Shown here one piece after another: positions 6,979 to 64,000 of a stretch of 64,000 nt of DNA (positions are counted from its first letter, which is position 1; every line of letters starts with the position of its first letter). The notes below the pieces were generated by a model, which saw nothing but the letters and a program-made list of their open reading frames with translations, made no database searches and was not told where the DNA came from. This DNA is from Tribonema minus (taxonomy: Eukaryota > Sar > Xanthophyceae > Tribonematales > Tribonemataceae): contig JAFCMP010000149.1 in the NCBI GenBank assembly GCA_017506865.1, positions 98,690-162,689 of the forward strand. Direction: 5' to 3'. A program made the position numbers and the translations under genes.

Positions 6979-9900
6979 TTAAACCCTCGCACGCGCTGCG
7001 TCTTCGTGGCTCTTGTAGATGAACAGGGGGGTCTCCTCTATGTCGCTCTCGCGGCAGTTGAGCTCGTCTAGGCCACCTGCGCGCAGCGGGCAGCGGCGCA
7101 TTGACAGTGTCAGCAGCGCCTAGAAACGAAGGTGGCACACGCGCAGGGTTAGCGCACTCGCAGTACCGGTCATAAACGAGAATTCAGACTGCGCACCACC
7201 ACCGCGCGCGCGTGCACACACCTGGGCTGCCCAGTCCCGCCTCGTCGTCATCCTCCCCGCCGCGCTCGCGGAACGCGTCATCGGTGAGCTCGCACAGCTG
7301 CAGGAGGCTGCGTAGTGCAGCGCGTCGCTCTGTGACGTGACCTGTCCTGTTCTAATGCGAGTCTCAAGTAGCCGTGTGATTAGAATGAGCATCGCCGTCC
7401 GTGAGCTCGCACGGCTGCAGGACGTCGTCAAGCTTGGCCGTGTAGTGCGGCGCGTCGTTCTGTAACGTGACCTGTCCTGTTCTTACACGTTTCTCGGGTA
7501 GCCGTATGGTTAAACTGAGCATCGGCACCACCGCGTGCGCGCTTACCTGGGCTGCCCAGTCCCACCTCGTCGTCATTATCAATGCTCCAACGGCCTTAAC
7601 ACCGCGCCGTGCGCTACTTATTTATGAGACGATCAGAATCCAGCAGCAGTTGCGCATGGACGAACTGCGCATCACCCATAGTGCGAGAGCTCACCTACCT
7701 CGGCTGGCCAGTACTGCCTCTCACCCTCCCCCAGCGTCAATGCTCTTGACGCCGAAATCGTCACATGTGAGTATCAAGGCAGCCATTGAGCATGAATAGA
7801 GTGCGCGCGCACACGTGCCTGGGCTGCCCAGTCCCGCCTCGTCATCGTCGCCGTCACCGCGCTCCCCGAACGCGTCGTCCGTGAGCTCGCACGGCTGCAG
7901 CAGGTCGTCGAGCTTCGCCGCGTAGTGCGGGACGTCGCTCTCCTCCAGGTTGCTCTCGACGCTCAGGTCGTAGACGTTGGCGAGGTCGCGCGCCATGATG
8001 GCCGCAATCTCCTCCGCATCGCCGATGTAGCGCCCGTTGAGGTGCGGCGCGGCGCCCTCCAGCCTTATGGGTTTGAAGTTCTGCGCGCGAGGCGGCGGCG
8101 GCGGCAGCGGCGGCGGCGGCGGCGGGGGCGGCAGCAGAAGGCGGCAGCGGAGGTGAGAGGGGTGGCGGTGATGGATGCATGGTCAGCGTGTGTGCTTCAG
8201 TGCCCGTTGAGGTGCGGCGCGGCGCCCTCCAGCCTTATGGGCTTGAAGTTCTGCGACAGCGGCGCGGCAGCGGCGGCGGCAGCGGAGATGAGAGGGAGGG
8301 CAAGATGATGGATATGCGTGAGTTCAGCCTGTTGCGCCCCGTGCTATTTGATTTCATGGGGTGGCAGTCCTGCGCCGGCTGCAGCGGCGGCAGCAAAAGC
8401 GGCAGCGGCAGCGATGAGCGGAGGAGAAGTGCGGCAGCATTCACAGCAGTGTCACACCTGGCGTGCCACGATATCACTGATGGGAGAGCTGTGCGGCAGC
8501 ATTCACAGCAGTGTCATGCCTGGCGTGCCACGATATCACTGATGGGGGAGCGGGGGGGCCTCACCTTCTCTAAGCGGTACAATCAGTATCGGGAGGGGGG
8601 GGGGCTCGCCTGCTCTGAGTGGTACATGAGTATGTGAGGGGGGAGGGGGAGGGTGTCACCTCATCTGAATGGCACACTTTGCGGCATCATTTTGCAGGGG
8701 GGGGTTGAGGGGGGGGAGGGGGGGAGCTCACCTCATTGAAGTAGTATATATGGGGGGGCGGGGGGAAAGCTCACCTCATCTAAGTGGTATATGAGGGGGA
8801 CGGCGCGTGGCAGCTCCACGTGTCGGATGTCATCGTCGCTCACGCCGTCCAGGTGCTTGAGGAGGCTCCTCACTGTGGCACAAGTTTCAAGCACCGGAGG
8901 GGGAAGGGGGGGGGGGAGGGGGCGGAATAGCGTGTGTGAGGGGGGCACATCTCACAGGCACTACGCAGTGGCAGGTAAGTGAGTATTCTGCAGTGTGCCT
9001 GAGCGGTGGCAGCAGTGGGGCTGAGGTGAGGAGGCTCCTCACTGAGGCACGAATTTCAGGCAGCACGTGTGCGCGCGGGCAGGTAAGGGTGTGTGCTAGG
9101 AGCGAGCGTGTGGCATTCGGCAAAACAGGGTGCCCAGCGGCGGCAACAGTGAGGTTGAGATGTGCGCTGCTATGCTGACCCTGACCCTGGAGCCAGGCAC
9201 AGCAACGCGGCGGTGTGCAAATGTGGCTCGAAGCATGTAATTGTGATGAACGACGCACACGGACCAGGCGCTTACGATGCACTATCTACTGAGCAATGAC
9301 AGCAGGACCGTCACGACAGCGTGGTCTGGGGAGCAGTGCTGCATCGATCACGCCGCTCAGACCGCATACAAAAACATATGCGTGCAGGACCGGACCGCCG
9401 GCTTCCGCGCCCGTTCAGGTGAGTCTCTATTCCTGAGCACTGAGCACACGACTGCCGCTACTAAGTCGTCCAAGCTCACCGGTGATGTGCAGATGCCGCC
9501 GGCGACATTGCTAAGCGGTGCTGTGGCGCAGCTCCTGTTACCACGCGATCACGTTTTGTCAACCCTAGCTCTAATTTGAAACTTGCGGTTGATCTCTGTG
9601 GCCGCACACGCAAGTGCGATGTGTGAACCCTAGCCTAACCCTAAGCCCCCAACCCCAACTTCAAACTTACAGTTGTTCTCGTGGCAGCACACGCATACGC
9701 GCTTGCCGGAGCGGATCATGGGCACGATGGTGTTGTCCCAGCAGTCATACTGCTACATAGTGTCCCAAACTTCAAACGTACAGTTGCAGCCATATGTAAT
9801 CCTTCTGTCCCAAACTTCAAACTTACAGTTGTTCTCGTGGCCGCACACGCACACGCGCTTGCCGGAGCGGATCGTCGGCACGATGGTGTTGTCCCAGCAG

Positions 9901-12900
9901 TCCACGCTGCGCGCCTGCGTGTCCTGCAGGCTCTCCGTGCGCGGTATCAGCGCGCGCTCCAGGAAGTCGTACTTGCGGTTGTTCCCCGGCCACAGGCTCG
10001 AGTCCTCGCTGTAAAGGGAGGAAGGGGGGGGGGGCAAGGCGGAATCAGCAGCCGCTCGGTAGATAAACGAGGGGAGGGGGGGGGGGGGGGGGGGACGGAG
10101 GCAAGGCTGAAGCAATAGCGCTGCAACTTCAAGCTGTTGTTGAAGTGATGAGTGCGCGCTCCAGGAAGTCGTACTTGCGGTTGTTGCCCGGCCGCAGGCT
10201 TGAGTCCTCGCTGTAAAGGGGGGGGGGGGGGGGGGGGGCAAGGCGGAATCAGCAGCCGCTCGGTAGATAAACGAGGGGGAGGGGAGGGGGGGGGGGCACG
10301 GAGGCAAGGCAGAAGCAACAGCGCTGCAACTTCAAGCTGTAGTTGAAGTGATCAGCGCGCGCTCCAGGAAGTCGTACTTGCGGTTGTTGCCCGGCCACAG
10401 GCTTGAGTCCGCGCTGACAGGGGAGGGGGGGGGGAGGCAGGGGCAACGGGGGGTCAGCAGCTGTACGGTGGCGATACATGAGCAAGCAAGTGAGCAAGTG
10501 AGTAAGTGGGTAGGCAAAGCCACAGCGCGCGCCTCACCTGATGGGCGGCGGCCGCACGTCGAACGAGCGGCGCCACAGCTTGCCTTGAGTCCTCGCCATA
10601 CCAGTCAGTGAGTGAGTAAGTGAGCAAGTGAGTAGGCGGAAGCGACAGCGCGCGCCTCACCTGATGGACGGCAGCCGCGCGTCGAACGAGCGGCGACACG
10701 GCTTGACCTGAGTCCTTGCCGCATGACCAAGTAGGTGAGTGAGTAATTGAGTAAGCGCTAACATAAAAAGCCTCACCTGATGGGCGGCGGCCGCACGTCG
10801 AACGAGCGGCGCCACAGCTTGACCTGGTCCTCGCCGTACACGCGCACGCACTCCTTCTTGTTGCGCCCCACCAGCGCGCCATAGCAGCGCTCATTCAGCC
10901 GCCAGTCCGTCACCACAGGCACGTGGTGCAGCCCCAGCTCATCCATCACGACCTTGAGATAAGGTGAGAGTTACACAGAGTGCGGGGTTAAAGTTGAGAG
11001 CAGGGTCACGTTCATCACGTCGTTAGGGTTAGGGCTGGATTTGCACAGATTGCGGGGTCACCAAGACCTTGGGCATACGGTTAGAGTTACACAGGTGCGG
11101 GGTTAGAGATGAAATGAAGGTTACGTCCATCATGACCCTACGCTTAGGGTTGAAGTTTCACAGGTGCAGGATCATCATCAATCACGATAAGAAGTACACA
11201 GGTGCGTGATTAGAGGTGGGGATAGGGTTGCGTCCATCACGACCTTGGAGTTCTACTTGGCGTTACTCAGGGTGCGAGGTCAGAGTTGGGATGAGGGTTG
11301 CGTGCGCACACGACAGCACAGAGGCCGCTGCTTTCACAACAAGCGTCCCGCTTCCCGGAGTAACAAGTGCAGCTGCGCACGGCCTGCTTTTGAAGTTCTG
11401 CACCCAGCTTCCTGTGACTCTCCCATTACTACCAGCACGGCAGCGCTGAGCCAGTTCAGGACCGCCCCCGGTTGAGAAGCCTTTCCTTCCCCGCAAGCAT
11501 GCATGGCTGCGGCTGTGCACGCCCCCCTCTTGAGGTTAGGGCCCCAACTTCCTCCGGTGACGCTCGTCCAATGCGGCCCTGGATGGAGTGCGCACCACCA
11601 GCACAGTGCTCTTCCCTGTCCACAGACATCAACGCGGCTGTAAACAGGGCTCCTCTTGTGAGGTTGACCGCAGCTTTGTTCCCGGGACGCTCGCTACAAG
11701 AACCTCACCAGCTCCGGGGCTGCAGCTCACACCGCCGTTGGCGCATGGCCGGCCCTCAATCCAGCCATCGAGTGCGCGCTGCTAGCTGCTTACGAGAGTC
11801 AGAGCGCCGCCTTCGACGCGCGCAGGCACGGCTGTCGGCAGCGCGCATCAGCGCTCAGCAGCCGAGATCCGCGCGCCGCCGGCCGTTGACGCACCAGAGC
11901 AACGCGCACGCATGCGCTACGTACGGCAACCAGCGCATGCTGACGCTCAACGCGTTGCGGCGCGCGCTGCCCACGAACCCCCTACCCCGTGCTGCAGCGC
12001 TCAGGGGGCTCCGTCCGCGCAGCTCCGATCGGCGTGTGCGCTGACAGCTATTTGGCCTTCGTTTCCGCGAAACCACTTTTGGCAGCCGTCTAAATTGGAA
12101 CTGTCGGAACTCGTCTGAACTCACTTGCGGGCAAAGGGGCTCCAACGAGGGTGTTTGACTCCATTGGGTACATGTACATTTGCACACACCACGCTCTAAG
12201 CTGTGATCACAACTTCAAGCTGTAATGATGGTAGTTTGACAATTGCTGTCAGTACCTACTACCTAGTCGCCACACCTCGTTTCCACTCCTCCTCCGCCCT
12301 CCCCCTACCCCCTAGCCCTGGCCCTCACCCTGACCCTTTTGAGCATCAGCCTGTCAGGTCACCAGGATGTGACACCAAAGCCCCAAGAAGCCATAATACC
12401 ACAGCTCCAAGAAGCAGTAACACCTCCGCAACGCTCACGCTGGCTATGACTGGGATTGCAGATACAAACTGCATGCCATACCTCAACACACGCAGCCTCA
12501 CGGGCGTCGCTGGTATGACGCCCCCCCTGTGTTTGCTGCGCCCCTTCATCCCCCCCGCGAAACCACCGTCATCCGTGCATCAGCGCTCAGCAACCGGCAT
12601 CAGCGCGCGCGCGCACAGCAGCGTCACTCACCCACGCCGTTTTGATGGAGCGCTTCAGCAGGCTTGTGTATATAATGTCAAACTCATAGCCCGCCGCCAG
12701 CAGCACCTGCCCCGCCACTCGCGCCTCCAGCTCCCCCGTTTTTGTCAGGTTGGGATCCGTCCAGCCGATAAACCGATTTGCCTGCCACGCAGAGCGTGTT
12801 GAAGATGGTGTGTGTAAGTGAAGTGCGCAGGAGGGGTGGCGGGCTAAGTGGGAGTGAATTCGGCTGCGGTGATGTACACATGAATGGTGTCTGCTGTGGG

Positions 12901-14502: not shown

Positions 14503-17500
14503 ATGATGGGCTCGCATGGAGGACCGCACATCAGCTTTCAGGGTATCACGCTGGATCTCAGCGCGTTTGATGGCTTGCAGTTTGACTTTGTGGACAACCA
14601 GTTGGTGGTGCAATTTGCCAGCTTCACGGGCAAGCTGGTGCTGCAGCGGAACGCTACACTGCCACAGCTCAAGCAACCAGAGGTGAGTCTGCAGCCCCCC
14701 CAGCTCCTGGAGCCGCAGCGGTGCCAGCTCGGCAGCGAGCTGCTGCAGTTGGATGCAGCAGAACACGATCTGTCAATGCCGTTCTCACAGTTGGAGCAGC
14801 CCTCGGACTACGAGCCCGACAGGGATGACGCCAGCAGCGAGGCCGCAGCCTCCCGCAGCAAGCCGCAGCTCACCACCACCCTGCCTGGCAGCAGCACCAA
14901 GGATAAGAGCAGCGGCAGCCTGCTGTCGCGGCTGCCCAGGCAGGAGGCAGATATGGACGTCGATGAGAATGCGTGCAGTCCCACCCAGTCCACGGGCTCG
15001 TGCCCGCCGTCCCAGTTCAGCGTCGTGGAGCAGCAACACAGCAAGAAGGTTGCTCTGGTGTCCCCGCAGCCCTATGCGGCTCGCACCAGCCCCCAGCTTG
15101 CAGAGGCAGTTGCCCGAGTCGACGGAGCGGAGGCGCCCGTCACTGAGGCACCAGCAAAGAGGAAGCAGCAGCAGCAGCAGGGCAAGAAGCGCGGGCAGAA
15201 GGCGGCCGCGCACCGCGCCGCGGAGGACGGTGGTGCCGGCGCTTCCGATGCCGCAGCTGCACAGCAGCAGCAGTCGGCCAAGCGCGCTCGCAAGGCCAAA
15301 GCCGCCAAGCCCGCCCCCCCCTTCACCCTCGCGAACTTCGCGACCCCCTCGCCGGTGCGCCACGACGCCAAGAAGAAGACCAAGGGAGCTGCGGCGGCGG
15401 CAGCAGCGGCGGCGGCGGAAAATGATGCTACAGAAGACACCGAGGCCGCTGCTGCTGCCGCCGCAGCCGCGGCGCACGCCGCCGCTGCGCCGCCCTTCCA
15501 GCTGCCCACCGCCGCCGCCGCAGCGGCAGCGGCAGCGCCCGCGCATGCGGCCGCCGCTGACCAGTCAGCAGCAGCAGCAGCATCAGCGGCGGAGGCGGCG
15601 GCATCGGAGCAACAGCAGCTGGCGGCAGCGGCGGCGGGGGAGCGCGCTGCGCCAGTGACGGCGCTGCTGGCGCCGCTGCCCACGGGCACGAGCGCACGGC
15701 CGCTGGGGCGGTGGGGGCACGCGGCGGCGACGATCGGTGCGGGGCGCATCGTCATGTATGGAGGGCAGGGTGACGACGAGACGGAGCAGGTGACGTGCCG
15801 TGCTTGGGGTTAGGATTAGGGTTAGTACCATATACCTTTGTGTTGGGCTGCCGGCTGGAGCTGGCCTACCGAACATGTGAGACCTTTCCAATACTGAACA
15901 CCCATGCCTCGAACGCGAAAAGCTTGCACACAGAATTCTCTTTGGCTGGTGGATACGGTGGTACTGTTTGACTCGTGGCCAATTGCTGCAGCAGCGGCGA
16001 CCACGGTTATTGGTGGAAGGCACTTGCGGCTAACCATCCCTTGTCACCTAGAGCTCTACGTCTTTTGATTCATTTTCATTATGGTGTTAGGGTTAGGGTT
16101 AGAGTTAGGGTGTAGGCCGTGCTGCGCCTCTCGTGCTCGTTGCCCGCCGCCGATGTGATGCGCGCCACTGTGAGCATTCATACGCTGTAAATGCGGTGTT
16201 ATGACGCAGGACGCGAAGGCTCCCGTGTCAAGTCGCAGCACATCCGTCGCATCTAGCGCCGCTGCCGCCGCCGCCTGCGCAGGCTGCATTTGGCGGCCTG
16301 CACGGGTCACGCTCGTGTCGCGCGCATGCTCGCGGTGACTGGCAGCATCGCTTGCTCTTGACTGATGAGCAACAAACACAGTGCCGAGAAGCACCGCGCA
16401 CCCGCCATGCGGACGCTGTCGACGCCACAGTTGTGACGCTCTGACCTCACCTCGCGTCGTAGGCTGCATTCGGCGACCTGCGAGTCTGCGCGCTCGATGG
16501 CGGCGGCGGTGGGGACGTCGCTCGACAACCCAAACCCTAATTCCAGTTATAATCTTGATAATCAACGCATGTCCATCGCGTGGCGCGCTGCCGCCACCCG
16601 CGCAGGCCACGTTCGGCGACTTGCACGTGTGCACGCTCGCGCCGGGTGCGGCGGCGGCGGCGTGGACATCGCTCGACCCAAACCCTAACCCCAGTTACAA
16701 TCTTCACATTCAGCGCATCCCCATCGCATCTCGCGCTATCGCCGCCTACGCAGGCCACGTTTGGCGATCAGCACGTCTGCGCGCTGCGTCGGGCGCGACG
16801 CTACTTCGCCCGTCACTTCAAACCCGAACCCCAATCATGTTCCCTGATGTTCACCGCACATCAATCGCGCCGCCGCCACAGGGCACGTTCGGCGACCTCC
16901 ACGTCTGCACGCTTGCGCCGGGCGCGGCGGCGGCTGCGTGGACGTCGCCCGTCACCTCAAACCCTAACCCCAATTATCAACTCAATCATGAGCACTTGAT
17001 TTTAACCGCACGTCCATCGCGTCTGACGCCTCCGCCACCGCCCGCGCAGGCAACATTCGGTGACCTGCACGTCTGCACGCTCGCGCCGGGCGCGGCGGCG
17101 GCGGCGTGGACGTCGCCTGTGAACTGCGCCGCGCAGCCGCGCGCGTGGGAGGCGTCGTGCTTTCTCGCCGACAAGAACCTGCTCGTCACATTCGGCGGCG
17201 AGCGCGGCAGCGACGGCGACATTGAGGTGCGCCGCGCCGTCGCAATGAGTATTCGCGTGGCACGTTGGCAGCAACTTCAAGACTTTGATTGGGAACTCTG
17301 CTGCTATCCTAACCCGATCTTAAGATTATTACAGAAGTGTTAATAGTTTTTCTCGTCATGTTCGGCGGCGAGCGCGGCAACGACGGCGACATCGAGGCAC
17401 GGCGTGCCGCGAGGACGCGTAGGGGGTCATGAATGCTCTGCTTCAGCAACTTTAAGACTTTGCGCGGGGACTCTGCTGCTACTTTATCGGACGGGCAGCA

Positions 17501-18093
17501 TAGTAAGGGGTACTCTCAATTTAAGTTGCTGCGTCACGTTCGGCGCCGAGCGCGGCAGCGGCGGCGACATTGAGGTGCTGCGCCGCTGGGATAGGGACGT
17601 GGGGGCAGCCAGTACTCGCGTGCCACTTTGTTAGGTAGCATCTTCAACATCAACTGTTTGTGCGGCAGCGACGGCGAAATTGAGGTGCGCCGCGCCGCCG
17701 GGACGCGATACATGGGGGTAGTGCATGCCTTTTTAGTAGCAACTTCAACTTTCCGCTTCATGCGCCCCTCCTCACCCCCCTCTGCCGCCCCCCGCTGCGT
17801 GCGCTGCTGCCGCCGCTGCAGTGCCTGGATGACATCATGGTGCTGGACACGGAGATTTTCCTGTTCTACCCGCCCGCCACCAGCGGCAAGCCTCCCAGCG
17901 CGCGCTCCGGGCACACTGCCGCTATTCTCGGCAAGGTCAGTCACTGCGGGTTGTGAAGCAACTTAAAGGCTCATCTTGGCGATGCTGGACCGCGCGTTGT
18001 CGCCAGATTCACAGCCGATTCGAGCGCGCTGTGGCCACCCTGCCGCCATTTTTGGCAAGGTCAGTCACTGGCGTTTTTGGAGCTCAGGTCAGC

Positions 18094-18128
<35 letters not shown>

Positions 18129-21100
18129 CACAATCAGCCAGCACCATCTGTCCTTACTGAGCGCGCTCCGGCCGCCATCCTCAGCAAGGTCAGTCACTAC
18201 TTCTTAAGGCTTCACTAGGGTTGTGCAGTGCTCAACCGCGTCGTCGCCAGATTCAATCGCCGCATTTTCTTGGGCTTTGAGGCTCCTGCCATGCCCAATT
18301 ATTGTGTTGACGTCGGTCAGGTCTTTGAAGCTGAGGTTGGTTTGTGCGTGTGGGTGGTGGGGTGTGGGGGGTTGTTCACACACAGCAGTACCGCTTGTCC
18401 TCGATCCTCGGAAAGGCCATATCTTGGCGTCTTGGAGCTGGTTACCACGTGCAGCAGGGTCAGCGCTCCGCACTCACCCTGCCGATTAGACCAGAGTGCT
18501 GGGCTTACGCCCCCCTCCCCCCCCCCCCGCCCCCCAGCCCCCCCTCCCCCCCCCCCCCCCCCGGTCGTCATTGTGTTGGAATTGGGGTTCGATCGTTGTG
18601 GAGCGCTGATGCATACATACCCACCTCCCCCCCAAACGCCGCCCCCTCCTGGCCGCGCAGGACGTGGTGGTCTTCGGCGGCGCGCGCGGCAGCAACTGGC
18701 AGTTGTGGAGCACTGACGTGTACCCCCCCCCCCCCCCCCCGGCCCATGATCAGGACGGATGCCAGTGTTGCGGTCAAGCGTTCCCACCAGCTCGGATTGC
18801 ATGTTGCGGCGCTGTTGCGGAGCACTGATGCAGACCACCCTCCCTTATCTTACATATATACCCTTACCTTACGTACTGCCTGCGCAGGACGTGGTGGTAT
18901 TCGGCGGCGCGCGCGGCAGCGCTCCGCACTCACCCCATCGATCAGACCAGAGTGTTAGAATTACGCCCCCCCCCTCCCCCCCCCCCCCCGTCGTCGTCGT
19001 TGTGATATAATTGGGGTACGGCTATTGTGGAGCGCTGATGCATACCCCCCCCCCCCCCCCGCCGCCTTTACGCCGCGCAGGACGTGGTGGTCTTTGGCGG
19101 CGCGCGCGGCAGCAAGTGGCAGAACAACCTGTACGCGCTGGACACGGACCGCTGGCAGTGGCGCTGCCCGCCGACCGAGGGCGGCGCCCCCAAGCCGCGC
19201 TCGTACCACAGGTGAGCCATGATGCACTGCTCGCAACGCTCGTACCACAGGTGAGCCATTCCGCATGCCTGCGAGAGCAGCTGGCCCTTCGGGTTAGGGA
19301 TAGGTTTAGGCCGCCGCCTACTGCACTGCCGCCGATCACGACGCACAGCGCCCCACATACCTGACTTGCAGAGCCAACGCTGCCGCTCGTATTGGTGCCA
19401 CAACTGCCACTTTAAGGTGCATCACGCATAGCAAATCATCCGAGATCACTTCTCATCAAGCTTACGTCCCCCCCCCCCCCCCCTTGCAGCGCAACGGCGA
19501 TAGGACCCGACCGCACCGCGGGGCCCGGCAGCGGCCCGCGCATGCTGGTGTTCGGCGGCAACAGCGAGGGGGAGGTGCGTGCCGCCGCAGCAGCGCTCAG
19601 ATGATGTGCACGCTGAATTCAGTAAGTGCTCAGGGCCACTTGAAAGTAGAGGTGCGCCTGTGCACAATCGGACCCCAATCTGGCGGCATCCGGCGGCGAC
19701 GGCGACGGCGGCGGCGGCGGGGCGTGTCTGCGTGCATGTGGCGATGACGGCGGCAGCAATGCACACGGGTCATGTCATGCCACCGCCGGGTGCCGCCATA
19801 TATCTGGCCCGTGCGCTTCGTCTGTCCCCGCGTGCCCACCGCGTGCACGCGCCGCAGGCATACTAAGACGTTTGGAGCGTAGAAAAGGTTGAGTACAGGT
19901 TTGACCCGACCGCGCAGCTGCTCCGGGCCCGCAGCGCCGCAGCGCGGTCCTGAACAAAGCGGACTCCAACCCTCACCTCGTCCCTGACCTCCCTCGCTCA
20001 CTCGCGCGCATGCATGATCCATTCCTGCGTGCCAAACGCGCGCGCACGCCGCAGGCGTTCAACGACGTCGTCGTGCTCGAGGCGCGCGCGGGGCGGCGCT
20101 GGCGCTGGTAACGACTACTCCTAACCCTAACCCTCCCCCGCTCACGTGCCATGCGTCCCCGTGTGCCGAACGCATGTGCCGCAGGCCTTTAACGACGTTG
20201 TCGTGCTCGAGGCGCGCGCGGGGCGGCGCTGGCGCTGGCAACGACTACATACTCCCAACCCTAACCCTGCCCCATTCACGTGCCATGCGTCCCCGCTTGC
20301 CGAACGCATGTGCCGCAGGCCTTCAACGACGTTGTCGTGCTCGAGGCGTGCGCGGGGCGGCGCTGGCGCTGGTCGCGCCCCATGGTCATGGGCGACGCGC
20401 CCGCGCCGCGCACAGGGCACGCCGCCGCGCTGCTGCCCGACGGCCGCAGCGTGCTCGTCTCCGGCGGCTGGGACCCGGACGTGGGCGGCGTGAAGTGCTT
20501 CGAGGACGCGTTCGGTGAGTGTCGGGCGCGCGCGCGTATGTCGTCAGTACGACGCACATCGGTACCCGGACGAGTGTCAACACGAGGAGTATCGGTTCCT
20601 GTGCCACGCATCTCTGTAGCTGTATGAGTGTCGTACAGGCACCGAGATGCGTGTATGCGTGGCACCGAGTATCGCGCAGGTACCAAGATGCGTGGCACAG
20701 GTACCGAGGTGCATCGTATCGACAACAGTGTCGTGCAGGTACCGAGATGCGTGCGTTGTGTCTACGACACGTGGGGGCGCACAGTGTCGACATTGTGGCG
20801 CGCCGCTCTGCGCTGCGCTGCGTCGGTATGCGCTGCGTCGGTATGACGGGGTCGCCGGTAGCAGCACGCCGCCGCGATGCGCGCGTAGGCGAACTGCAAG
20901 CATGCGGCATCGAGTGCTGTTTTGAGGGCATACTTCAACATGAGAATTACGCTGTGACCACACGCATACGCGCTCACACACACACACGCTCATGCTGCGC
21001 AGAGTGCGCAGACGCTCGTGACGCCTGGCTGTGCAGTCGTGCCTCCCGTGCCCTATGCATGGCTGCGGTGCCATATTCACTTGCCCTCCCCCGCCCACCC

Positions 21101-23276: not shown

Positions 23277-23309
<33 letters not shown>

Positions 23310-25109: not shown

Positions 25110-25140
25110 GCCCCCCACGCACTGTCAGGTGCGTGGGGGC
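25110..25140. repeat. GC-rich hairpin
   Basis: CCCCCACGCAC and GTGCGTGGGGG are perfect reverse complements around the six-base loop TGTCAG. It lies about 40 bases from a second perfect hairpin. Possible roles are an RNA 3'-end structure for the minus-strand gene or a footprint of a mobile element; neither is shown. Confidence 0.8.
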
Positions 25141-29152: not shown

Positions 29153-29183
<31 letters not shown>

Positions 29184-41339: not shown

Positions 41340-41370
<31 letters not shown>

Positions 41371-47900: not shown

Positions 47901-50493
47901 GTGAATCAGGCTGTGACGTGCGAATTACATCCCAGTCGACGACGAAATCGCACGCAACGCCCTACGACTCTGGCTCTACTGCTGAGCCGGCAGCTTTGTA
48001 CACGCTTTGCGAGTAGCCTACCCTCATTGGGGTCACATTTTTCGTCTTGAACAAGGCTGTGGCCTGCGACTCACATCCCAGTCGACGATGAGAACGCGCG
48101 CGACGCCCTGCAACTGCGCAGTTTTGTCACACTTTGCAAGTAGCCTTGCCTTGTCAAAGTAGCCTTGCCTTATGTTAAAGTTGCCTTATAAAAGTAGCCT
48201 TGCCTTATATTCAAGTCTCAAATTACCACTTGAAGAAGGCTGCGACCTGCGACTTACATCCCAGTCGACGATGAGAACGCGCGCGACGCCCTGCGACCGC
48301 GCCCACGCCGCCGCGGTCGCCACGTTGTTGAGCAAACAGAACCCTGCGCACAAAGCAGCAAAAAAGAGTGGTGCACGGCGCGGTGAGCAGAATACGCCAA
48401 ATGGCCAGATCCGCACAATGCGCGGACACACGCAGCTCGCTGCGGTGTCAGCATACAAGCCCTGCCACGGTGTATGTGTGCAGACCATGTGCGAACGGCC
48501 TGAGCAGCGCCACGCCGCTGCGCGCGGTGCCCTGAGCACTGCCGCGGTCAGCGGCGTGACCTCAGCTGCGGGGCATGTATGTATGCAACACTATTCATGT
48601 ATGTATGCTCACTCTTTGAGCCGTACGGCTCCGCATGGTGGCCGGGCGGCCTGATCAGCGCCACGCTGCTGCGCACGGCGCCCTCAGGCACTGCCGCGGT
48701 CAGCCATGTGACGAGCACTGCTGCAGTCAGCGGTTTAAGCCCCGCCGCGTACTCATGTACGCAAGTATGGCCTGAACAGCGTCACGCCGCTGCAAGTGCC
48801 CCTGAGCACTGCCGCGGTCAGCGGTGCGAGCCCAGCCGCGGGGTACGTAAGTATGCATGTGGGTGTGTTCACTGATTGCGCCGTGCGGCTTCGCATGGTA
48901 ACTCAGCAGCCTGATCAGCGCCACGCCGCTACTGACATACACAGCGCCCTTGACATTACCGCGGCGAGCGACACCACCCATCCCCGCTGCAGCGCATGCA
49001 CACATCGCTCACCTTTAGCGCCGTGTGGCTCCGCGTGGTGGCCGGGCGGCCTGATCAGCGCCACGCCGCTGCGCACGGTGCCCCTGAGCACTGCTGCAGT
49101 CAGCGATATGAGCCCCGCCGCGGCGCGCCGTGCGCAGTCCACGCTGTGCTCATTCATGAACACCGAGTCGTACTGCTGCGCCTCCTCTGCGCGCGCCACA
49201 TGCGGCATTGGCAGCGGGGGGGGGGGAGGCGGTCACTTATGGTGGCGTGTAGGTGCAGTCATCACTGCCAAGCAACCAGGTTTTATGACTGACCATGCGG
49301 TGCTGGTGATAAGTGCAGTCGTCATTGCCGAGCAACCGAATTCGAGGACTGACCATGGCTCAGGATGAAGCAGTTGCAGGTTTCATCAAAGGCCCCAAAT
49401 TCGGAGCACGCATGTGCAACTGCACTGGCGGGCTTGCCCAGCATAGCCAGGAGGCGGCCCAGATATTGCTAATCCATACATACCTACAAAGCCTCGCGAT
49501 TACCTACATACCGCAATACATGCATGCATGCATATCGCAGGACACGTTGGGGATTTGCGGTGTTGGCGACCTACCTGCAACAGCGCTCGCTGGCTTGCCC
49601 AGCACGGCCTGGAGGCGGCCTAGGTAGTGCTCGCTGTGCACCCGGTTGAGCGCTGATGTATGAACAAGAACAAGGAAGTGCATTCATGAAACCGTGTCAG
49701 GAAAAAGGCAGGCTGTTGAGGTGATTGTTGAAGTTAGTACTGAATTGGTGCATCGTGCACAGGGGGTGGTGCACAGCCACATGTAGAACGCCATCTGCCA
49801 CCGGCGTAGGGTACAATCAAGCAAGGCCTCCAAGATGAAGACACTGACGAAGCCGATGAGTGCAAAGTGTACAGCCTCAGTTCCGCCCTGCCTTGTACTG
49901 CACCACGGCTGCTGCGGCGAGCTGCCCGTAGGCATTTCAGCCGCAGCTGACATTGGTGGTTGACGGCGTTGCCTCTGGTTTTTACAACAACTGCCATTCT
50001 TCCAGGCACATGTGTGCAATACACAGCTAGTCCGTTGGTGAGAAGCAAAGAGTGTGTACGTAGGTGACTTGCTGAGGTTGCTGTCAGGGGGAGGATTGGC
50101 TTCCAAGTCGCTGACAAAGTGGTGGTTTGCGAGTGAAAACCGCCCCGATCAAGGGAGCCTATGCAAAGCATTCCTGGTCTACAGACCAATCAGAGAAATA
50201 TTTACGGAGAGCAGAGACAGCGCTCACCCCCTTCCTCCAGCGACTCCGTGGCGACCATCGTGCACCTCTGCAGCACGCCCTGGCTCGTGAGCTCCTGCAT
50301 GATGGCAAGTATGCGCTCCGGGCTCTCCGGGTGCTTGCGCGCAGGGTGCTTGTGCAGCAGCAGCTCAACATCGTGCACCAGCCCCACTGAATGTTTGCTG
50401 CTGCTGCTGCTGCTGCTGCTGTTGTGTATGGCCGCAGAGTCGGCTATGATGGCGGGTCCCGGGCCGTTCGCCTTAGAGACTGCTCGAGGAGAG
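44953..50493 (-). CDS. Class II histone deacetylase (5' end unresolved)
   Basis: Zn-dependent removal of acetyl groups from lysines of histones or other proteins. Minus-strand exons: 50228-50493, 49575-49652, 49013-49186, 48258-48343, 47291-47403, 46410-46548, 45750-45941 and 44953-45261, giving 451 residues in consistent phase. Family motifs in order: [158 protein letters not shown] and [11 protein letters not shown]. The catalytic His pair, the Zn ligands in DVH and GFDA, and the GGY tyrosine are all present, so it should be active. The pattern fits the HDAC6/10-like (class II) group. No in-frame ATG precedes the first motif, so at least one upstream exon ending in phase 2 is missing. Introns 3 and 4 are junction-echo arrays. 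Confidence 0.93.
47404..48257 (-). repeat. Donor junction-echo array, deacetylase intron 4
   Basis: The functional junction (+ strand GACTTACATCCCAGTCGACG, then ATGAGAACGCGCGCGACGCC) is echoed at about 48068-48110, 47924-47966 and, more diverged, 47747-47795. AGTAGCCTTG/GAGTAGCCTTC blocks separate the units, which are about 145-190 bp. Confidence 0.92.
48344..49012 (-). repeat. Donor junction-echo array, deacetylase intron 3
   Basis: Copies of the exon 3 segment GGCCTGATCAGCGCCACGCC, then GCTGCGCACGGTGCCC and ACTGCTGCAGTCAGCG, lie at about 48498-48570, 48625-48745, 48770-48842 and 48890-48975. The functional exon is at 49013-49186. One copy (48625) also keeps the GGCTCCGCATGGTGGCCGGG part, so whole blocks of the exon were duplicated. 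Confidence 0.93.
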
Positions 50494-56172: not shown

Positions 56173-59100
56173 ATGGTGCTGAGCACAGCACAGCAGATCC
56201 ACAGTTTGCTCGAGAAGACCAGCGACTGGGACAAGGTGAGAGCTGCAAGGCACGGACGATCTTGCATCGCCAGATAGACCCCACCTGGGTCATCTGAACT
56301 CCTCGTCGCGACCAGCTCCGCTGCGGATCCAACATCGTTCGAGCTTTAAGTTCCCGTGCGAGCCTAGTTCACAGTTGCCGGGCCGACGCTAATGCGCCTA
56401 TGTGTAATGTGAAGCAGATCGTTTGCAGTCCGACTCTCCATCGTCAGCCTCCTTCTCGACTCTGACATCACAAGTTGAACATGCCAGCACTTTACACTCA
56501 CCAGAGAACGCCAAGCCGCGCCGTGGAGAAACCGGGCTTAGGTGGGCAGCCTCACCCCATCAAATTCTTTGGTCAAGATAGTAAGGCATATATGTCCATT
56601 GAATTTTGTATCATTTGCAGCACGTGTGACCTGTACATATATGCACTTTTCATTTATAAAACTCTCCGATGATGGCCCATGACCCATGCAGATTGCACGT
56701 GTCTTGCCACTGGCACACCAGCAGACATTCCTTGCTGCAAGTGCTGCGCGTGAAGCTGCAGGTTACGCCGCGTGGCAACGTTGCCATATGACATCAACTT
56801 TCCATTGACCACATTGCAGCCTGATTGAGAGGAGGTTATGTTGCGCGACCGCGCCCCACATTTTGCAGTGCGAGGGTGCCTATGTAGGTCACATGCAGCT
56901 AGAGCCAGACTGCGTCGGCAATGCGGCAGGATGTCACGTACCCCCCAAAGTCCATAATTTCTGTAGACACAGCAATCGGAGCTGGCCGCCACTCAAGGCA
57001 CTCGCCAGCAAGAAGCTGGGTAGAAGGTTTCGCAGTGCAGCGACAGTGACCAGCATGCCCGCCCGCGCGTACATCAAGCACCGCGCCACAAGCCAGTGGC
57101 TGTACACTGCTGCGTCTCGTACCACTCAAAGTCCATCGGTGCTGGGGTGTACAGGAAGCAGACTTGGAGCTGTGGCCGCCGTCTCTAGGCTAGGCGCTCG
57201 CCATCAAGAGACTGGGTGGAACGTTTCGCAGTGCAGCGACAGCAGCATGCCTGCCCGCTCTGCCATCAAGCGTCGCCCGCGAGCCTGCGGCTGAGCGCTG
57301 CTGCGTCGCCTCCACGCCACCGCCGCCGCCGCCACGCAGGATGAGCGGTACATGGCGACGTCCGACCTGTGCACGGAGCTGCAGAAGGACGTGAAGATTG
57401 AGCCGCAGCTGGAGCGCCGCGTGTGCGCGGCGGTGCTCAAGCAGCTTGACGACTCATCCAACGACGTCCAGGGCATCGCCGTCAAGTGCCTCGGCATCCT
57501 GCTCAAGAAGGTGCAGGAGGCGCAGGTAAGGAGGCCTAACTTCAACTTCATCTTCAACTGTGGTTTCGATGATTTTTCCCGGTGTGCCGAAATGTGTGGC
57601 GTGACGAGACTGGCTGTGGAGGCGGGTGTGAAGCGGTAATGGTTCCGCGGCAGCGATATGCCTGTCCCTTCATTCGGGAGCGTCTTTCGTTGTGCTTCAG
57701 AATTGGGTCCACGTCCCCCTGCCCCAGCCTGCCCGCCATGCTAGTGCTCACCCCGCCGGCGCACTCATTTTGCCCAGACGCGCATCGCGCGCCCAATCAG
57801 AGTAGCTGACACCGCCCTCACGCCGCAACTAACACGTACCCCCCCCCCCCCCCCCCCCCAAAATACCCCTCACACACAGCACCGCATGCGCGCCGCACCA
57901 CCCACCCTCAGCTCTTTAACTTAAACCATGTACCTCAACTCCGCCCCCAAGGTGGGCGAGATCTGCGACAAGCTCTGCACGCTCATCCTGGAGGGCAAGC
58001 CGGAGCTGCGCGACATCTACTCCATAGGCCTCAAGACGCTCATATCGGACGTGCCGGACGCGACGGGGCCGTCTGTGGCGAAGCGGCTCACGGCGCGCCT
58101 GCTCGGCGGCGTGCAGAAGGAGGAGGCCAAGCTGGAGTGCCTCGACAACCTGACGGATCTCATGCGGCGCTTCGGGCACGAGGTGCGCGAGCAATCAACC
58201 TTGAACCTACTGATTTGAACACCTAGCGGCTTGTTGAGCACTGTGATGGAGTGCCTGGACAACCTCACGGGTCTGATGCGGCGCTTCGGGCACGATGTGA
58301 GCGGGGCTTTGGCCGGGGTTGTGGTTAGCTGACTCTAGACCTAACTTCAATACTCTGCCGCTTGTCGAGCGCCTGCGACTGGAATGCCTCCAGGGACAGA
58401 CTGACACATCTGATGCGGCGCTTCAGGCAGGAGGGGAAAGCGGCAGCGCCTGTGCCTAGGCCGCGTCGCTGAGCACTGTTCTGGTGGCGCCTCGGGCACG
58501 CAGTGAAGGGCCGGCGGCATAAACTTGAGGGTTAGCCAATCTAAATTATGACCCTTGTCCTCGACGGGCCGTTGGGCACTGCGATTGCGGGGGCGTCCAG
58601 ACAGCGTCACATGGGGATGCCACAGCAAGCCGCGTACGAGGGGCGGCGGCGCCTCCCTTGTGCGGTATCGTGCTGCTGGTGGCGCTTTGGGCACGACCGG
58701 AATTGCCGGCGCAAGGCTTGTGGATAGCTGAGTACCCCAGCCGTGTGCTTGTGAAAGCGCCCACATGAGAGACCGCCTCCGGAAGCCGCGCGGCGCCGTC
58801 GGCGCTGAGCGCTGCTGTTCTTGTGTTGAGCGCTGCTCTTGCGCGGGCAGCCGGCTGGCCGGGGGCGGGGTGGGCGCTGCGGGTATGCGGCGCGGGAGTG
58901 ACAGCTGTCGGTGCAGCAGGCGGAGCGCTGGCGCGCTACGTGCATCCGGAGGCGGCTGCTGATGGCCCAGCGCGGCCTTGCGCAGCGGAGCCGAGTGCTG
59001 CGCTGCGGGGCAGGGTTCAGGGCCCCGACAACGTACTCGAGCACTCTCTGTGCATGCCCCTATAAGGTGTGCACGTAGGCTGTGGTGCTGAAGCTTTTGC

Positions 59101-62100
59101 CGCCAATGCCACCTGCATCTGGGCCGTGCTCTGCGCCAATGCCTTCTTCGACATCAGGACTGCAGCGTGTGGCGTGGCGCCGTGGCGGTGGAGGCATGCC
59201 AGCGATGGCCGTCCACGTGGCGCCGCAGCTCCACTCGCCAGGTGGAGCCCGAGCACAACAGTGCCACACCTTGACTCACAAGAAGCACCGCATTTGCAGG
59301 CCTCATGTGCAAGCTTCCCCCACCTCAACAGAATGACTTTCCTCTTACCTGAACGACAACGCCGCTGCCGCTGCCGTCGCCGCTGCCGCTGACGTCGCCG
59401 CTGCTGCCACCGCTGCCGCCGCTCTGCGCGCCAGGTGGAGCCCGAGCACAACAGGGTCATCGAGGCCCTGCTGGTGCAGCTGGGGCAAGAGCGTGCCGTC
59501 GTGCGCAAGCGCGCGACGGCGTGCCTCGGCTCCATCGCGGTGGTCCTCTCGGACGCGCTGCTCAACAAGCTCGTCGTCCACCTGCTCGCGCAGATCAAGG
59601 GCAGCGACCGCGCGGACATCGTGCGCACGCTCATCCAGGTGGGGGCGCGGGAACGCGCGTGAGCGCTGCCGCAGCTGCTGCCGTAGCTGTTGCGCCGTGT
59701 GCGTGTTTTTTGGGCAGCGCGTCGTGTGTCGTGCTTTCCTGAGTGCGTGGTTCTGGGCGCGCGTGCGCTGCTGTCGCCGCCGCCGCTCGCGCCGCGTACC
59801 GCGGTTGCCTGCGCGTCGCATCGTGGTCCTGATACACACACACACACACCATCTCCCCTAACATACCCTCGCCCCCCATCCTGCCATGAACTCTTGCGTG
59901 TGAGCAGGCTGTCGGCACGATGAGCCGCACCACACGGTTTCAGCTTGAGATACATACCCCCTCCTTTCCACTCATACGTCCCCCTCCCCCCCCTCCCCCG
60001 CAAACACACACCCCGCCTCCCCTGCCCACTCCTGCGCGTGCGCGCAGGCCATCGGCACGATCAGCCGCACCGTGGGGTTCCGCCTGGGGCGCCACCTGGA
60101 TGCCATTGTGCCGCTGTTCCTCAAGTTCATCGGCGACATGGACGACGAGGACATGCACACGGAAGCCGCCAGCGAGCTGCGCGACAACTGCTTCCAGGGG
60201 TTTGAGTCGTTCGTCCTGCGCTGCCCGCGCGAGGTGACGCCGGTGAGTCGCCGCTTGCTTGAAGTCGTCTGGTGAAGTTCATCCCGCATCCTGAAGTTCA
60301 CTGTCGTGTGATGTTGCGCACGGAGGCCGCCAGCGAGCTGCGCGACAACTGCTTCCAGGGGTTTGAGTCGTTCGTCCTGCGCTGCCCGCGCGAGGTGACG
60401 CCGGTGAGTCGCCGCTTGAAGTTGTCTGGTGAAGTTGATGTTGTCCGGTGACGCGCCAGCAGAGGGGACGTAGAGACGAAATGACGCCGGTGTGTCACCC
60501 CTTGAAGTTGTCTGGTGAAGTTCATTCCGCATCTTGAAGTTCATTGTCGTGTGATGTTGCGCGTTTCCTGCGGGCTTCGGCGGCATTGTTACTGCGGCGC
60601 TCGATCTTACGGGAAGACTCACACTGTACGCTACTCAAGCACGTTACGTCGATGACGCATTCGGCGATGCATCGCTTGCGCAGTGCACTCACTGACAGCT
60701 GCCATTCTCCACGGCGATGGCTGCGTGTTTTTTCCCTCTCACAGGCGGACACTGGTTTGAGTAGGGTTAGCTCACTTAAGCTATATATATACGCATACTC
60801 ATCCCCTGCGATGTGTGCTTGGTGACGAGCGCGCAGCACCTGGACAAGATCCTGGAGGTGGTACTGCGCTTTGCGCGCGACGACTACAGCTATGACAGCG
60901 ACGGCATCGACGCGTATGAGGGCGCACACTGGTCTGTGTAGGTTTAGGTGACTACAGCTACATTCATGTGTTCACTTGCTTAACCCCTGCGACGTATGCT
61001 CGATCGCAACGCCAAACAGCACCTGGACAAGATCCTGGACGTGGTGCTGCGGTTCGCGCGCTACGACCCCAACTACAGCTACGACAGCGACGACGTGGAC
61101 GCGGAGGTGGGCGGCGGCCAGCAGGAGGAGGAGGAGGACTTCATGGAGGACGATTTTGGGGGCGGCTCTGACGATGACGACACCAGCTGGAAGGTAATAC
61201 TTCAACTAGTACTTCAACAGTCTACGTGAGGCATGTATGTGTGTATATTGGCAAGGAGGAGGAGGAGGAGGTCTTGGTGGAGGTCGATTTTGGGGGCGGC
61301 TCGGATGATGATGACACCAGCTGGAAGGTAATACTTCTAACACTAAGTATACGCGGGATATGTATGTGTATAGTCTAAGCGACTTCAACACTATACGTGG
61401 GGTCTGTGTGTATAAGAGGGGGACGAGGGGCACTTTATAGAGGACGACTTTGGGGGTGGCTCGGATGATGACGACACCAGCTGGAAGGTAATATTTCAAA
61501 TAATACTTCAACAGTCTACGTGGGGTATATTTGTGTACAGGCGACTCAACAATATACGTGGAAATGTATGTGTAAAGGCGGGGAGGAGGAGGAGGACGAC
61601 TTTATGGAGGACGATTTTGGGGGCGGCTCGGATGATGACGACACCAGCTGGAAGGTGATGCGATCTTTTGATTCATTTCCGTGGTACTTCAACTAATACT
61701 TTAATCGTATAAGTGGGGTATGTGTATATTGGCGAGGAGGAGAAGGAGGAGGAGGAGGACTTCATGGGGGGGGACGACTTTGGGGGCGGCTCTGATGATG
61801 ACGACACCAGCTGGAAGGTGATAATTTAACCAATACTTCAACGGTATACGTGAGGCATGTATGTGTGTATATTGGCAAGGAGGAGGAGGAGGAGGACTTT
61901 ATGGAGGTGTTTTTGGGGGCGGCTCTGACCAGCTGGAAGGTGTTACTTCAGCTTATACTTCAACATCTATGTGGGGTATGTGTGTGTATCATACAGGCAA
62001 CTTCAACACTGTATGTGGGGAATGCATATGTATAGGCGGGGAGGAGGAGGAGGAGGAGTTTACGGAGGACGATTTTGGGGGAAGCTCTGATGATGACGGC

Positions 62101-64000
62101 ACCAGCTGGAAGGTACTGCTTCAACTAATACTTCAACATTGTACATGTATCTGTCACCAAAGCACAAACAAGTATCAATTGGTTGCTGGTTCTTATGTAC
62201 CTTGAGGTATCGTAGCAACAAATAACTCGAAGTAGTACTGGCATTATAAATACAGCTTTGGAGGAGGACGAGGGGGACTTCATGAGGGATGAGGTTGGGG
62301 GCGACTCAGATGATGACGACAACAGCTGGAAGATACCACTGACATAACAAGTATGCAATGCTGCTCATCACTCTGTGGTACTTCAAGTATACCACTCCTG
62401 AATGAGTGTTGTGTATTCGGTTTGACCCACTGACCCTGACCTCCTTTTTGCTGCGCCGCCGCCGCCGTAGGTGCGCCGCAGCGCGCTGCGCGTCGTGCGC
62501 GCGATCGTGACAACGCGCACGGAGCGGCTGGAGTGGCTGTGCGGCTCGTGTTGCGACGTGCTCGTCTCCAGGTTCAAGGTCGGTGACGTGCCTGGTGCAA
62601 CTTGAAGTTTGTTTAGGATCGTCCTGGCGTGTTTTGGCAGACCGACTGCGCCATTGTGACGATGCTGCTCGTATTGTATGTGAGTCATGATTATGTATGC
62701 GCACACAGGCTGCATGCGTTGACTCTTGCGGAGCCGGCACTCAGTAACTCCCGCTCTGCGGGAGTTGCTGCTCCTCCCCATGTCTTGCGGGCAAGATGCC
62801 CATAATTCGCGCATCGTTTGTGCATCAGCAGTTGCCTCGCATGAGTTTGTTCAAAGGAAAATGCCGGGCGGCTTGACCCCCAGCAGCGTAGGTGCATGCA
62901 CAGTTTCGCTGCTGCTGTTGCCGCTGCTGCTGCGCAGCTCGCCAACGCTGTCCGCTACCACATGCGGCAGCACTCAAGCGCCTGAACTATGCTCCAGTCG
63001 CAACTTCAACAGCCCTACAAACGCGTAGTCTGCATCATCCGCTGATGTTTGGCATGATTGGCCTGCAAGCGTCGAGTGTCCACGCTGACCCACTCGCCAA
63101 CGTGCCTGCGTGCACACGCATCCTCTGTCCGCTTTGACACTGGTCACTGTGCGCTGCGTGCACAAGCGTCCATTGTCACTGCTGACACTTGTCAACGTGG
63201 TTGCTTGCGAGCGCAGGAGCGTGAGGAGAACGTGCGCGTGGACGTCTTTGGCTGCTTCACCAGCCTGCTGGAGGCAGCCGGCGCGCAGGATGCGCGGCAG
63301 CGGCAGGCGGTGCGTCACCTTTGGTGTTATGGTGCCCCGTGTGCGCTTGTGCGCGCGCAGTAGTGCCCTCGCGGCGCACCGTCACGAGCGCTTGCAGTCC
63401 TATGGCGCATGAGGGGACTCACGCGCACGGGCATCAGCGAGCGGAGCGCCGCGCTGAGCACTGCTTTCGTGGCGTGTTGCGATGCGTGGGCGCGGTGCTG
63501 AGCGCGTCGCGCGTTTGCAAGGGGGGCTGCGTAGCATGCGCGCGCCAGCACCAGCTCTCAGCTTGTGCTGGATTGCGCAGAGACAGTGCTGCCGCTGTGT
63601 CTCGAATGCGCGCCTGTGCTGGACACTGCTTGCGCGAACGCATGCGCGCCGCAGTACCACGTGCCACATGCACGCGCACACACGCACACGGGCGCGCAGC
63701 GGCAGCTACTGCAAGCCCTTCTCTTGCGTCATGCGACATCCCCCTACGCGCTCCAGCTCTTCCGAGAGATCCCAGCCTCGCTGTTGCGCGCGCTAACCCT
63801 AACCCTAACCCTAGGAGTGGCAGTGCTTGCGTGTGCGACAAGGTGCGCCAATGCCTTCATGCCGCAGGCTCCGCGGTCATTTGCAGCAGCTACAGCTCGG
63901 TCATGTAGCAGCTACACAGGACAGCGCCGCCACATGTCTGACGGGGGCGGCGAAGGCGAGGCGGCGCATAATTGTTGCTCATCGCAATGGTGTTGCCTAA
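56173..64000 (+). CDS. CAND1: CAND1, cullin-associated NEDD8-dissociated protein, 5' part
   Basis: CAND1 is a HEAT-repeat solenoid that wraps unneddylated cullins and exchanges their substrate receptors. Exons 56173-56235, 57340-57525, 57952-58182, 59435-59638, 60048-60242, 61020-61193, 62471-62578 and 63217-63309 all join in phase 0 for 418 codons; the gene runs off the window. Matches in order: [131 protein letters not shown], an acidic loop ([27 protein letters not shown]) and [16 protein letters not shown]. These follow the animal protein in order and spacing, so the model is sound. The remaining two thirds are missing; 63310-64000 shows no certain exon. Confidence 0.93.
56236..57339 (+). 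repeat. CAND1 intron 1 with a tandem duplicated segment
   Basis: Two copies of a segment of about 90 bp lie at about 56997-57080 and 57187-57275, spacing about 190 bp. They share GGTTTCGCAGTGCAGCGACA/ACGTTTCGCAGTGCAGCGACA and AGCATGCC(C/T)GCCCGC followed by ATCAAGC. These do not match the flanking exons, so they are a plain tandem duplication rather than an echo. Confidence 0.75.
58183..59434 (+). repeat. CAND1 intron 3 with echoes of both neighbouring exons
   Basis: Donor-side copies of exon 3 (GAGTGCCTGGACAACCTCAC, then TGATGCGGCGCTTCGGGCAC) lie at about 58245-58300 and 58383-58440, with shorter remnants near 58487 and 58679. On the other side, CCAGGTGGAGCCCGAGCACA at about 59239 repeats the exon 4 acceptor junction at 59431. 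One copy at 58245-58298 is almost perfect. Confidence 0.9.
59639..60047 (+). repeat. CAND1 intron 4 with acceptor echo
   Basis: GAGCAGGCTGTCGGCACGAT, then GAGCCGCACCACACGGTTTC, at about 59904-59942 repeats the exon 5 start (GCGCAGGCCATCGGCACGAT, then CAGCCGCACCGTGGGGTTCC) at 60042. Spacing is about 138 bp. A CACACA run and C-rich stretch lie between. Confidence 0.88.
60243..61019 (+). repeat. CAND1 intron 5 with echoes of both neighbouring exons
   Basis: A virtually exact copy of the last 80 bases of exon 5 plus the donor and 20 intron bases lies at about 60318-60425 (functional 60161-60265). A third donor fragment is near 60482. A copy of the first 100 bases of exon 6, diverged by several substitutions and with its own GCGCAG acceptor, lies at about 60830-60935 (functional 61014-61100). 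Confidence 0.93.
61194..62470 (+). repeat. Seven-fold echo of the CAND1 acidic-loop exon end
   Basis: Copies of the exon 6 3' end (GAGGAGGACTT, ATGGAGGACGATTTTGGGGG, CGGCTC, GATGACGACACCAGCTGGAA, then GGT) end at about 61327, 61485, 61654, 61817, 61939, 62112 and 62332. The functional one ends at 61193. Spacing is 122-220 bp. All but the last keep the AAG|GT donor, and most keep the acidic reading frame over the final 15-20 codons. Intervening sequence is built of TACTTCAAC and ATACGTGGGGTATGT units. Confidence 0.95.
63310..64000 (+). other. CAND1 intron 8 or unresolved sequence to window end
   Basis: Begins with a GTGCGT donor. Contains GCGCTGAGCACTGC-type motifs, a CGCACACACGCACACGGGCG stretch and a telomere-like CCCTAA tract at 63792-63814. 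A GCCGCAG acceptor-like site lies near 63867, but the following frame soon stops and no CAND1 motif is recognised. Confidence 0.4.
63792..63814. repeat. Interstitial telomere-like tract
   Basis: Four CTAACC units downstream of the last assigned CAND1 exon. Similar two- to four-unit tracts occur near 519, 20122, 20257, 30647 and 36719. Confidence 0.85.

What the first reader, a model, noticed from the sequence alone, without database searches (positions are those of the whole stretch)
7077..62470. Introns built from tandem copies of their own exon-intron junctions (junction echoes)
In at least seven genes, introns contain 1-7 imperfect copies of the adjacent splice junction with 20-100 bases of exon sequence. 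Copies of the donor side always lie just downstream of the true exon, and copies of the acceptor side just upstream, with periods of about 115-325 bp. They span both exon and intron bases, so they are local DNA duplications, not retroposed cDNA. They are present on both strands and in genes with unrelated function. Divergence is graded: some are nearly perfect (60318-60425), others barely visible. Tandem duplication of an AGGT-containing segment is a recognised model of intron gain. Here it looks like a continuing process that also enlarges existing introns. I know of no described genome where most long introns carry such arrays.
Basis: partly seen in the sequence, partly recalled or inferred. 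Interest (0 to 1): 0.9.

Follow-up and report, generated by a model that had tools for sequence, protein, structure and literature searches.

The report
Decaying local copies of exon edges
Introns of some genes in this eukaryotic genome hold worn-out copies of the neighbouring exon edge; they look like leftovers of short local DNA duplications that were tolerated because the real exon stayed intact, so they are a record of how introns grow rather than a new kind of genetic element.

Summary
The window holds 117 local direct-repeat pairs in 41 clusters (none in three shuffles); 37 clusters lie in seven genes. Copies decay like neutral DNA, which argues against alternative exons and assembly error. 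None of 37 introns shows the AGGT intron-gain signature. 'Most long introns' is not borne out: 21 of 98 coding-like segments in random loci have a copy. Best reading: recurrent short local duplication, filtered by selection, with exon-anchored copies visible longer. Unexplained: hot versus cold genes; window introns 28-39% covered against 1.6% of intergenic DNA; and 15 of 24 well-preserved isolated pairs match over less than 60% of their spacing, so simple tandem copying may not be the whole story. No other eukaryotic genome was compared.

The parts
7188..7941 (-). copies downstream of the phosphoglycerate mutase exon at 7814-8080 (its own donor was not modelled)
   Evidence: cluster of 5 pairs; exon anchor
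8029..8313 (-). acceptor-side copies upstream of exon 7814-8080
8424..8799 (-). donor-side copies downstream of exon 8775-8872, with a 62-bp intronic tandem repeat in the same cluster
8858..9062 (-). acceptor-side copy upstream of exon 8775-8872
9653..9902 (-). donor-side copy of exon 9827-10008, 94.7% identical
9946..10469 (-). two acceptor-side copies upstream of exon 9827-10008
10487..10839 (-). two donor-side copies of exon 10777-10958
10944..11282 (-). repeats at the upstream edge of exon 10777-10958 (its acceptor was not modelled)
16238..20373 (+). five clusters in the Kelch gene region
   Evidence: Kelch exons; splice sites not modelled
26312..26923 (-). two clusters in a coiled-coil-like gene
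   Evidence: gene named from recall
31779..35228 (-). six clusters in a phosphodiesterase-like gene
   Evidence: gene named from recall, no family hit
39459..43716 (+). four clusters in a PAP/fibrillin-like gene
   Evidence: weak family hits
47745..48302 (-). three donor-side copies of HDAC6-like exon 48258-48343
48496..49126 (-). donor-side copies of HDAC6-like exon 49013-49186 (five hits)
58133..58444 (+). donor-side copies of CAND1 exon 57952-58182
59222..59459 (+). acceptor-side copy upstream of CAND1 exon 59435-59638
59896..60071 (+). acceptor-side copy upstream of CAND1 exon 60048-60242
60154..60562 (+). donor-side copies of CAND1 exon 60048-60242, the first 93.8% identical
60744..61113 (+). 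acceptor-side copy upstream of CAND1 exon 61020-61193
61116..62340 (+). array of seven exon-bearing donor-side copies of CAND1 exon 61020-61193, filling most of the intron
   Evidence: 17 pairs; eight hits, seven with exon sequence

Best explanation
The copies are neutral leftovers of recurrent local duplication of roughly 40-350 bp. A duplication that spans a donor leaves the first copy as the working exon and puts an exon tail plus GT into the intron downstream; one that spans an acceptor leaves the last copy working and puts AG plus an exon head upstream. Duplications that break exons are removed by selection. The copies then decay without constraint. Because the true exon hardly decays, exon-anchored copies stay recognisable about twice as long as intron-only ones, so exon edges look like the target. 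The rate differs strongly between genes and in hot genes is far above that of nearby intergenic DNA. Shown: local direct duplication, geometry, near-neutral decay, patchiness. Inferred: the molecular cause; my first guess is error-prone repair of DNA breaks (patch or fill-in) acting mostly in the bodies of some genes.
For: Near, direct and not inverted or distant; gene-specific (0 of 2432 swaps); geometry 71 of 72, donor and acceptor edges about equal (17 and 15). 64 copies: exon part 89.3% identical, intron part 80.9%; differences at codon positions 1, 2, 3 are 109 of 1106, 83 of 1116, 168 of 1116; GT kept in 31 of 36 and AG in 18 of 18, where plain decay predicts about 45 of 54. A uniform-rate simulation with selection gives junction clusters as 0.49-0.78 of all. 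In unselected loci most of the junction excess goes once longer visibility is allowed for: 28 of 86 against 19.5 (11.5 without), single-pair clusters 13 of 48 against 10.1, P 0.19. Unit lengths near and far from coding do not differ significantly.
Against: A uniform rate fails: in the window ten intergenic stretches are covered over 284 of 17,750 bases, introns of verified genes over 28-39%, while the simulation covers both alike. Clusters at coding edges are larger, 2.97 against 1.40 pairs; homology-driven growth did not reproduce this. Of 24 isolated pairs at 85% identity or more only 7 match over at least 95% of their offset and 15 over less than 60%, so many look spaced rather than tandem; young copies can lack the expected intron match. 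Intron parts are somewhat more diverged than simulated (21 of 43 at or below 0.64 identity against 30-40% simulated; for exon parts of 0.88 or more, 12 of 29 against 18-27%).
Confidence: 0.6

Rival explanations
1. Junction-targeted duplication: in some genes a property of exon-intron junctions or of splicing and transcription (pausing, R-loops, chromatin at exon edges) makes them duplication hot spots.
For: 12 of 28 window junctions spanned while intron interiors are 28-39% covered; the simulation with interior cover near 0.35 spans only about 0.2 of junctions. All 6 modelled junctions of phosphoglycerate mutase are spanned. Residual excess in unselected loci, P 0.016, and larger clusters at coding edges.
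Confidence: 0.2
2. Spaced templated copying: break repair or template switching pastes a short stretch of the nearby exon edge into the intron some 100-200 bp away, rather than doubling a segment head to tail.
For: 15 of 24 isolated pairs of 85% identity or more match over less than 60% of their offset; full tandem matches are rarer among coding-touching clusters (0.30) than others (0.56-0.58); the phosphoglycerate mutase copy at 9653-9746 is 94.7% identical over 76 exon bases but its intron match ends soon after the donor.
Against: Many copies carry 30-60 matched intron bases, and CAND1 and TCP arrays are head-to-tail; faster decay and indels in intron parts would shorten matches too.
Confidence: 0.12
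3. Intron gain by tandem duplication of an AGGT-containing exon segment.
For: Exon ends often read AG and exon starts G, as the model assumes.
Against: 0 of 37 introns show its signature: intron head against next exon head at most 10, tail against previous exon tail at most 11, controls up to 16 and 17. Copies lie inside introns with their own intact outer splice sites.
Confidence: 0.02
4. The copies are working alternative exons or alternative splice sites.
For: Copies score as coding and keep GT in 31 of 36 and AG in 18 of 18, a little above the plain-decay expectation.
Against: First and second codon positions change at 9.9% and 7.4% against 15.1% at the third, as free decay of the copy plus silent change of the true exon would give; some copies are broken.
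Confidence: 0.03
5. Assembly artefact.
For: No reads were available; the assembly has 554 contigs.
Against: Copies are diverged with a codon-position pattern of real evolution, and their position respects exon ends.
Confidence: 0.02

Closest known systems
Tandem duplication crossing an intron-exon boundary in the potato RdRp gene (PMC4974935; abstract and passages seen)
   Same: A local duplication that spans an acceptor, with intron tail and exon head.
   Different: One event that created a new spliced intron; here many events in many genes, whose copies lie inside existing introns.
Rogers-type AGGT tandem genomic duplication (PMC3443670, passages seen)
   Same: Tandem duplication near AGGT-like junctions.
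   Different: Needs an exonic segment and yields a new intron; signature absent in 37 of 37 introns.
Small tandem duplications from error-prone break repair (listing and abstract start of PMC8355091; a reference-list passage naming rice natural insertions)
   Same: Short local direct duplications with little overlap at the joint.
   Different: The repair pathway here is not known, and the restriction to some genes is not part of that picture.
Introners (listing and abstract start of PMC9860276)
   Same: Repeated sequence with splice sites in introns of many genes.
   Different: Introners are one element copied between genes; here each copy matches its own gene only.

Membership tests
Local tandem duplication with neutral decay | near, direct-orientation copies | tested here: met
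   77 near direct, 1 distant direct, 2 inverted
Local tandem duplication with neutral decay | copies free of coding constraint | tested here: met
   codon positions and splice sites
Local tandem duplication with neutral decay | match extends over the whole offset in young copies | tested here: inconclusive
   7 of 24 isolated pairs of 85% identity or more do, 15 of 24 match over less than 60%
Local tandem duplication with neutral decay | same rate in introns and intergenic DNA | tested here: not met
[quoted passage not shown]
   0 of 37
[quoted passage not shown]
   no relatives held
Introner | same element in introns of different genes | tested here: not met
   0 of 2432 swaps at score 22; exon edges only were compared
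Alternative or mutually exclusive exons | coding constraint on the copies | tested here: not met
Alternative or mutually exclusive exons | presence in mRNA | not testable with these tools
   no RNA data
Break-repair duplication (patch or fill-in) | little or no homology at the joint | tested here: inconclusive
   the seven isolated full-tandem pairs of 85% identity or more overrun their offset by 1-4 bp; dependence on a repair pathway not testable

The most novel reading that the evidence does not exclude
In this lineage some genes are in a state of continuing, gene-body-limited duplication that adds and renews intron sequence from exon edges at several times the intergenic rate, while other genes, some of the same families, are silent; what sets the two states apart is an unknown local property (high GC at third codon positions is a lead, not replicated in random loci).
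Probability: 0.3. Interest if true: 0.68.

Novelty: new variant of a known kind. Interest (0 to 1): 0.45.

Why it matters
Exon edges serve here as nearly undecaying reference copies, so the birth, ageing and loss of ordinary local duplications inside introns can be followed one by one. That makes the duplication part of intron growth measurable, and the contrast between hot and cold genes gives a testable question about what sets the local duplication rate. It also warns annotators: the copies carry splice sites and look coding, and my own coding score flagged several as exons.

Tried and rejected
Retroposed cDNA or a shared mobile element: rejected; copies span introns and match only their own gene. 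Working exons: rejected by codon positions. AGGT intron gain: 0 of 37. Telomeric repeats as repair filler at duplication joints: suggested by two copies, but not enriched in duplication spans (random loci 6 against 8.7 expected; window 8 against 4.7, 50 of 500 rotations as high; six gene loci 3 against 2.6). Homology-driven array growth: simulated, did not raise the junction share. Gene conversion from exon to copies: intron parts are somewhat too diverged, but the simulation comes near, so not claimed. A special unit length at coding edges: not significant. GC at third codon positions: correlates with cover in verified genes (rho 0.86 in 10 unselected genes outside the window, 0.79 in 14, 0.51 in all 17) but not in 17 random loci (rho -0.22); post hoc. 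Earlier touch tests (29 of 69 against 19.7; 38 of 86 against 11.5 or 19.5) were replaced by the fairer, which lowers the excess. The six-gene cold set understated the spread: four further HDAC-hit loci that I had not modelled hold 2-5 clusters each. A first simulation used few replicates and was superseded.

Full report
SETTING. The window is bases 98690-162689 of contig 149 of a genome of 158,181,000 bases in 554 contigs. It is eukaryotic: DIM1, HDAC6-like, CAND1, Kelch and phosphoglycerate mutase exons are interrupted by introns that fit GT-AG. The 18S looks stramenopile to me from memory; this was not tested and plays no part below.

OBSERVATION. Self-comparison of the window gives 77 direct pairs within 2 kb, 1 beyond and 2 inverted at E<1e-6. 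At E<1e-4 there are 117 pairs within 1.5 kb in 41 clusters and none in three shuffles; 37 clusters fall in seven genes and 4 between genes (gene limits drawn by me). I built splice models for 13 genes from homology anchors; of 48 candidate introns 11 were dropped for weak or missing splice models, leaving 37 introns of 12 genes. The last or first 80 exon bases matched the adjacent intron at a Smith-Waterman score of 22 or more in 14 of 37 introns; 0 of 2432 swaps with introns of other genes and 0 of 74 reverse-complement comparisons did. Of 72 exon-touching pairs in the 13 models 71 have donor-edge copies downstream or acceptor-edge copies upstream. In the protein-profile tables, which use no DNA comparison, I counted by eye seven partial repeats of a neighbouring exon among 226 matches, all with this geometry.

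HOW WIDESPREAD. By group: 8 of 14 window introns, 5 of 7 in two genes chosen because their tables showed copies, 1 of 16 in six others. Of seven HDAC genes found by profile, four loci hold 2-5 clusters in 3.3 kb and three genes have none. In 20 random 10-kb loci 21 of 98 coding-like segments have a local copy, and clusters per locus are overdispersed (69 clusters, P 1e-4, counts). The pattern is common and patchy; it is not shown for most long introns.

WHAT THE COPIES ARE. In 64 copies from gene models (44 donor, 20 acceptor) exon parts are 89.3% and intron parts 80.9% identical to the original; differences by codon position are 109 of 1106, 83 of 1116 and 168 of 1116. Read simply, a copy changes by about 8.6% at every position, the true exon adds about 6.5% of silent change at third positions, and in the intron part both sides change, which predicts about 17% against 19% seen. 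GT is kept in 31 of 36 and AG in 18 of 18, together 49 of 54 against about 45 expected. The copies behave as passengers, and the silent changes show real time since duplication, which an assembly error would not give. These figures come from local alignments, which favour similar stretches in all classes. A stricter look at 50 intron bases beyond the splice signal gives a median identity of 0.66 beside 0.90 for the exon edge (43 copies); simulated neutral copies give 0.68-0.72 beside 0.82-0.86, so real intron parts are a little more diverged than plain decay predicts.

IS THE JUNCTION SPECIAL? A simulation with a uniform rate and this filter gives junction clusters as 0.49 to 0.78 of all, rising with rate. 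In unselected loci (20 random, 7 HDAC-hit) the tightest pair of 28 of 86 clusters touches a coding edge; 11.5 are expected from random compatible placement and 19.5 if exon-anchored copies stay visible twice as long (P 0.016). For single-pair clusters it is 13 of 48 against 10.1 (P 0.19), for larger ones 15 of 38 against 9.3 (P 0.02). So most, not all, of the junction bias is explained. Unit lengths at coding edges, near and far are not significantly different (medians 138, 93.5 and 108).

WHAT IS LEFT. First, the rate is not uniform. Non-coding DNA within 600 bp of coding-like segments is 12-14% covered, beyond 1 kb 4-5% (ratio 2.85; within-locus rotations mean 1.5, 0 of 300 as high). In the window, introns of the four verified genes are 28-39% covered but ten intergenic stretches only 284 of 17,750 bases, whereas the simulation covers both alike. 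Second, clusters at coding edges are larger (2.97 against 1.40 pairs). Third, genes are hot or cold as wholes: all 6 modelled junctions of phosphoglycerate mutase are spanned, 0 of 38 in six other genes (one of those six still has a weaker copy). Intron lengths of hot and cold genes overlap. Homology-driven duplication in the simulation did not reproduce this. GC at third codon positions separates many hot from cold genes but not random loci. Fourth, of 24 isolated pairs at 85% identity or more only 7 match over at least 95% of their offset and 15 match over less than 60%; faster decay of intron parts may be the cause, but spaced copying is not excluded.

MECHANISM. Shown: local direct duplication of tens to a few hundred bases, recurrent, selection-filtered, decaying nearly neutrally. 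Inferred: break repair that copies a nearby patch, acting mainly in the bodies of some genes. The seven isolated full-tandem pairs of 85% identity or more overrun their offset by only 1-4 bp, which fits end joining or fill-in better than exchange between long repeats for the first step; the sample is small.

RELATION TO KNOWN WORK. A potato duplication crossing an intron-exon boundary and the AGGT model are the nearest published cases I saw (PMC4974935 and PMC3443670, passages). My searches on intron growth and junction duplication showed no title or abstract start reporting this genome-wide; they used narrow terms, listings were capped, and the library lacks most subscription papers. No other eukaryotic genome could be run as a yardstick, so whether the overall rate is unusual is open.

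Noticed in passing
20 random loci (L006-L023, L034, L035); window e.g. 31142-31178 and 31452-31501: Short interstitial telomeric repeats (TTAGGG type, 10 bp or more) are common: 42 in 200 kb against 1 in a shuffle, 17 in the window (window examples). Not tied to the duplications.
   Followed up: partly
random loci and window: Dispersed short motifs far above Markov expectation: CAGCGCTCA / CAGTGCTCA (73 and 48 counts against 19 and 13) and AACTTCAAC / ACTTCAACT (62 and 47 against 21 and 15).
   Followed up: no
L020 (contig 120, 100001-110000): Unusual locus with 38 inverted and 7 distant direct repeat pairs in 10 kb, unlike the other random loci.
   Followed up: no
13 gene models and 4 HDAC-hit loci: Exon GC at third codon positions tracks how many duplications a gene holds (rho 0.51 in 17, 0.86 in 10 unselected outside the window), but not in random loci.
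   Followed up: partly
window 61247-62323: The CAND1 copies score as coding and would probably be called as false exons by a codon-based gene finder.
   Followed up: no
L005 (contig 259, 28800-30806): The 18S gene found by pattern lies at the end of a short contig; a second match lies at the start of contig 270.
   Followed up: no
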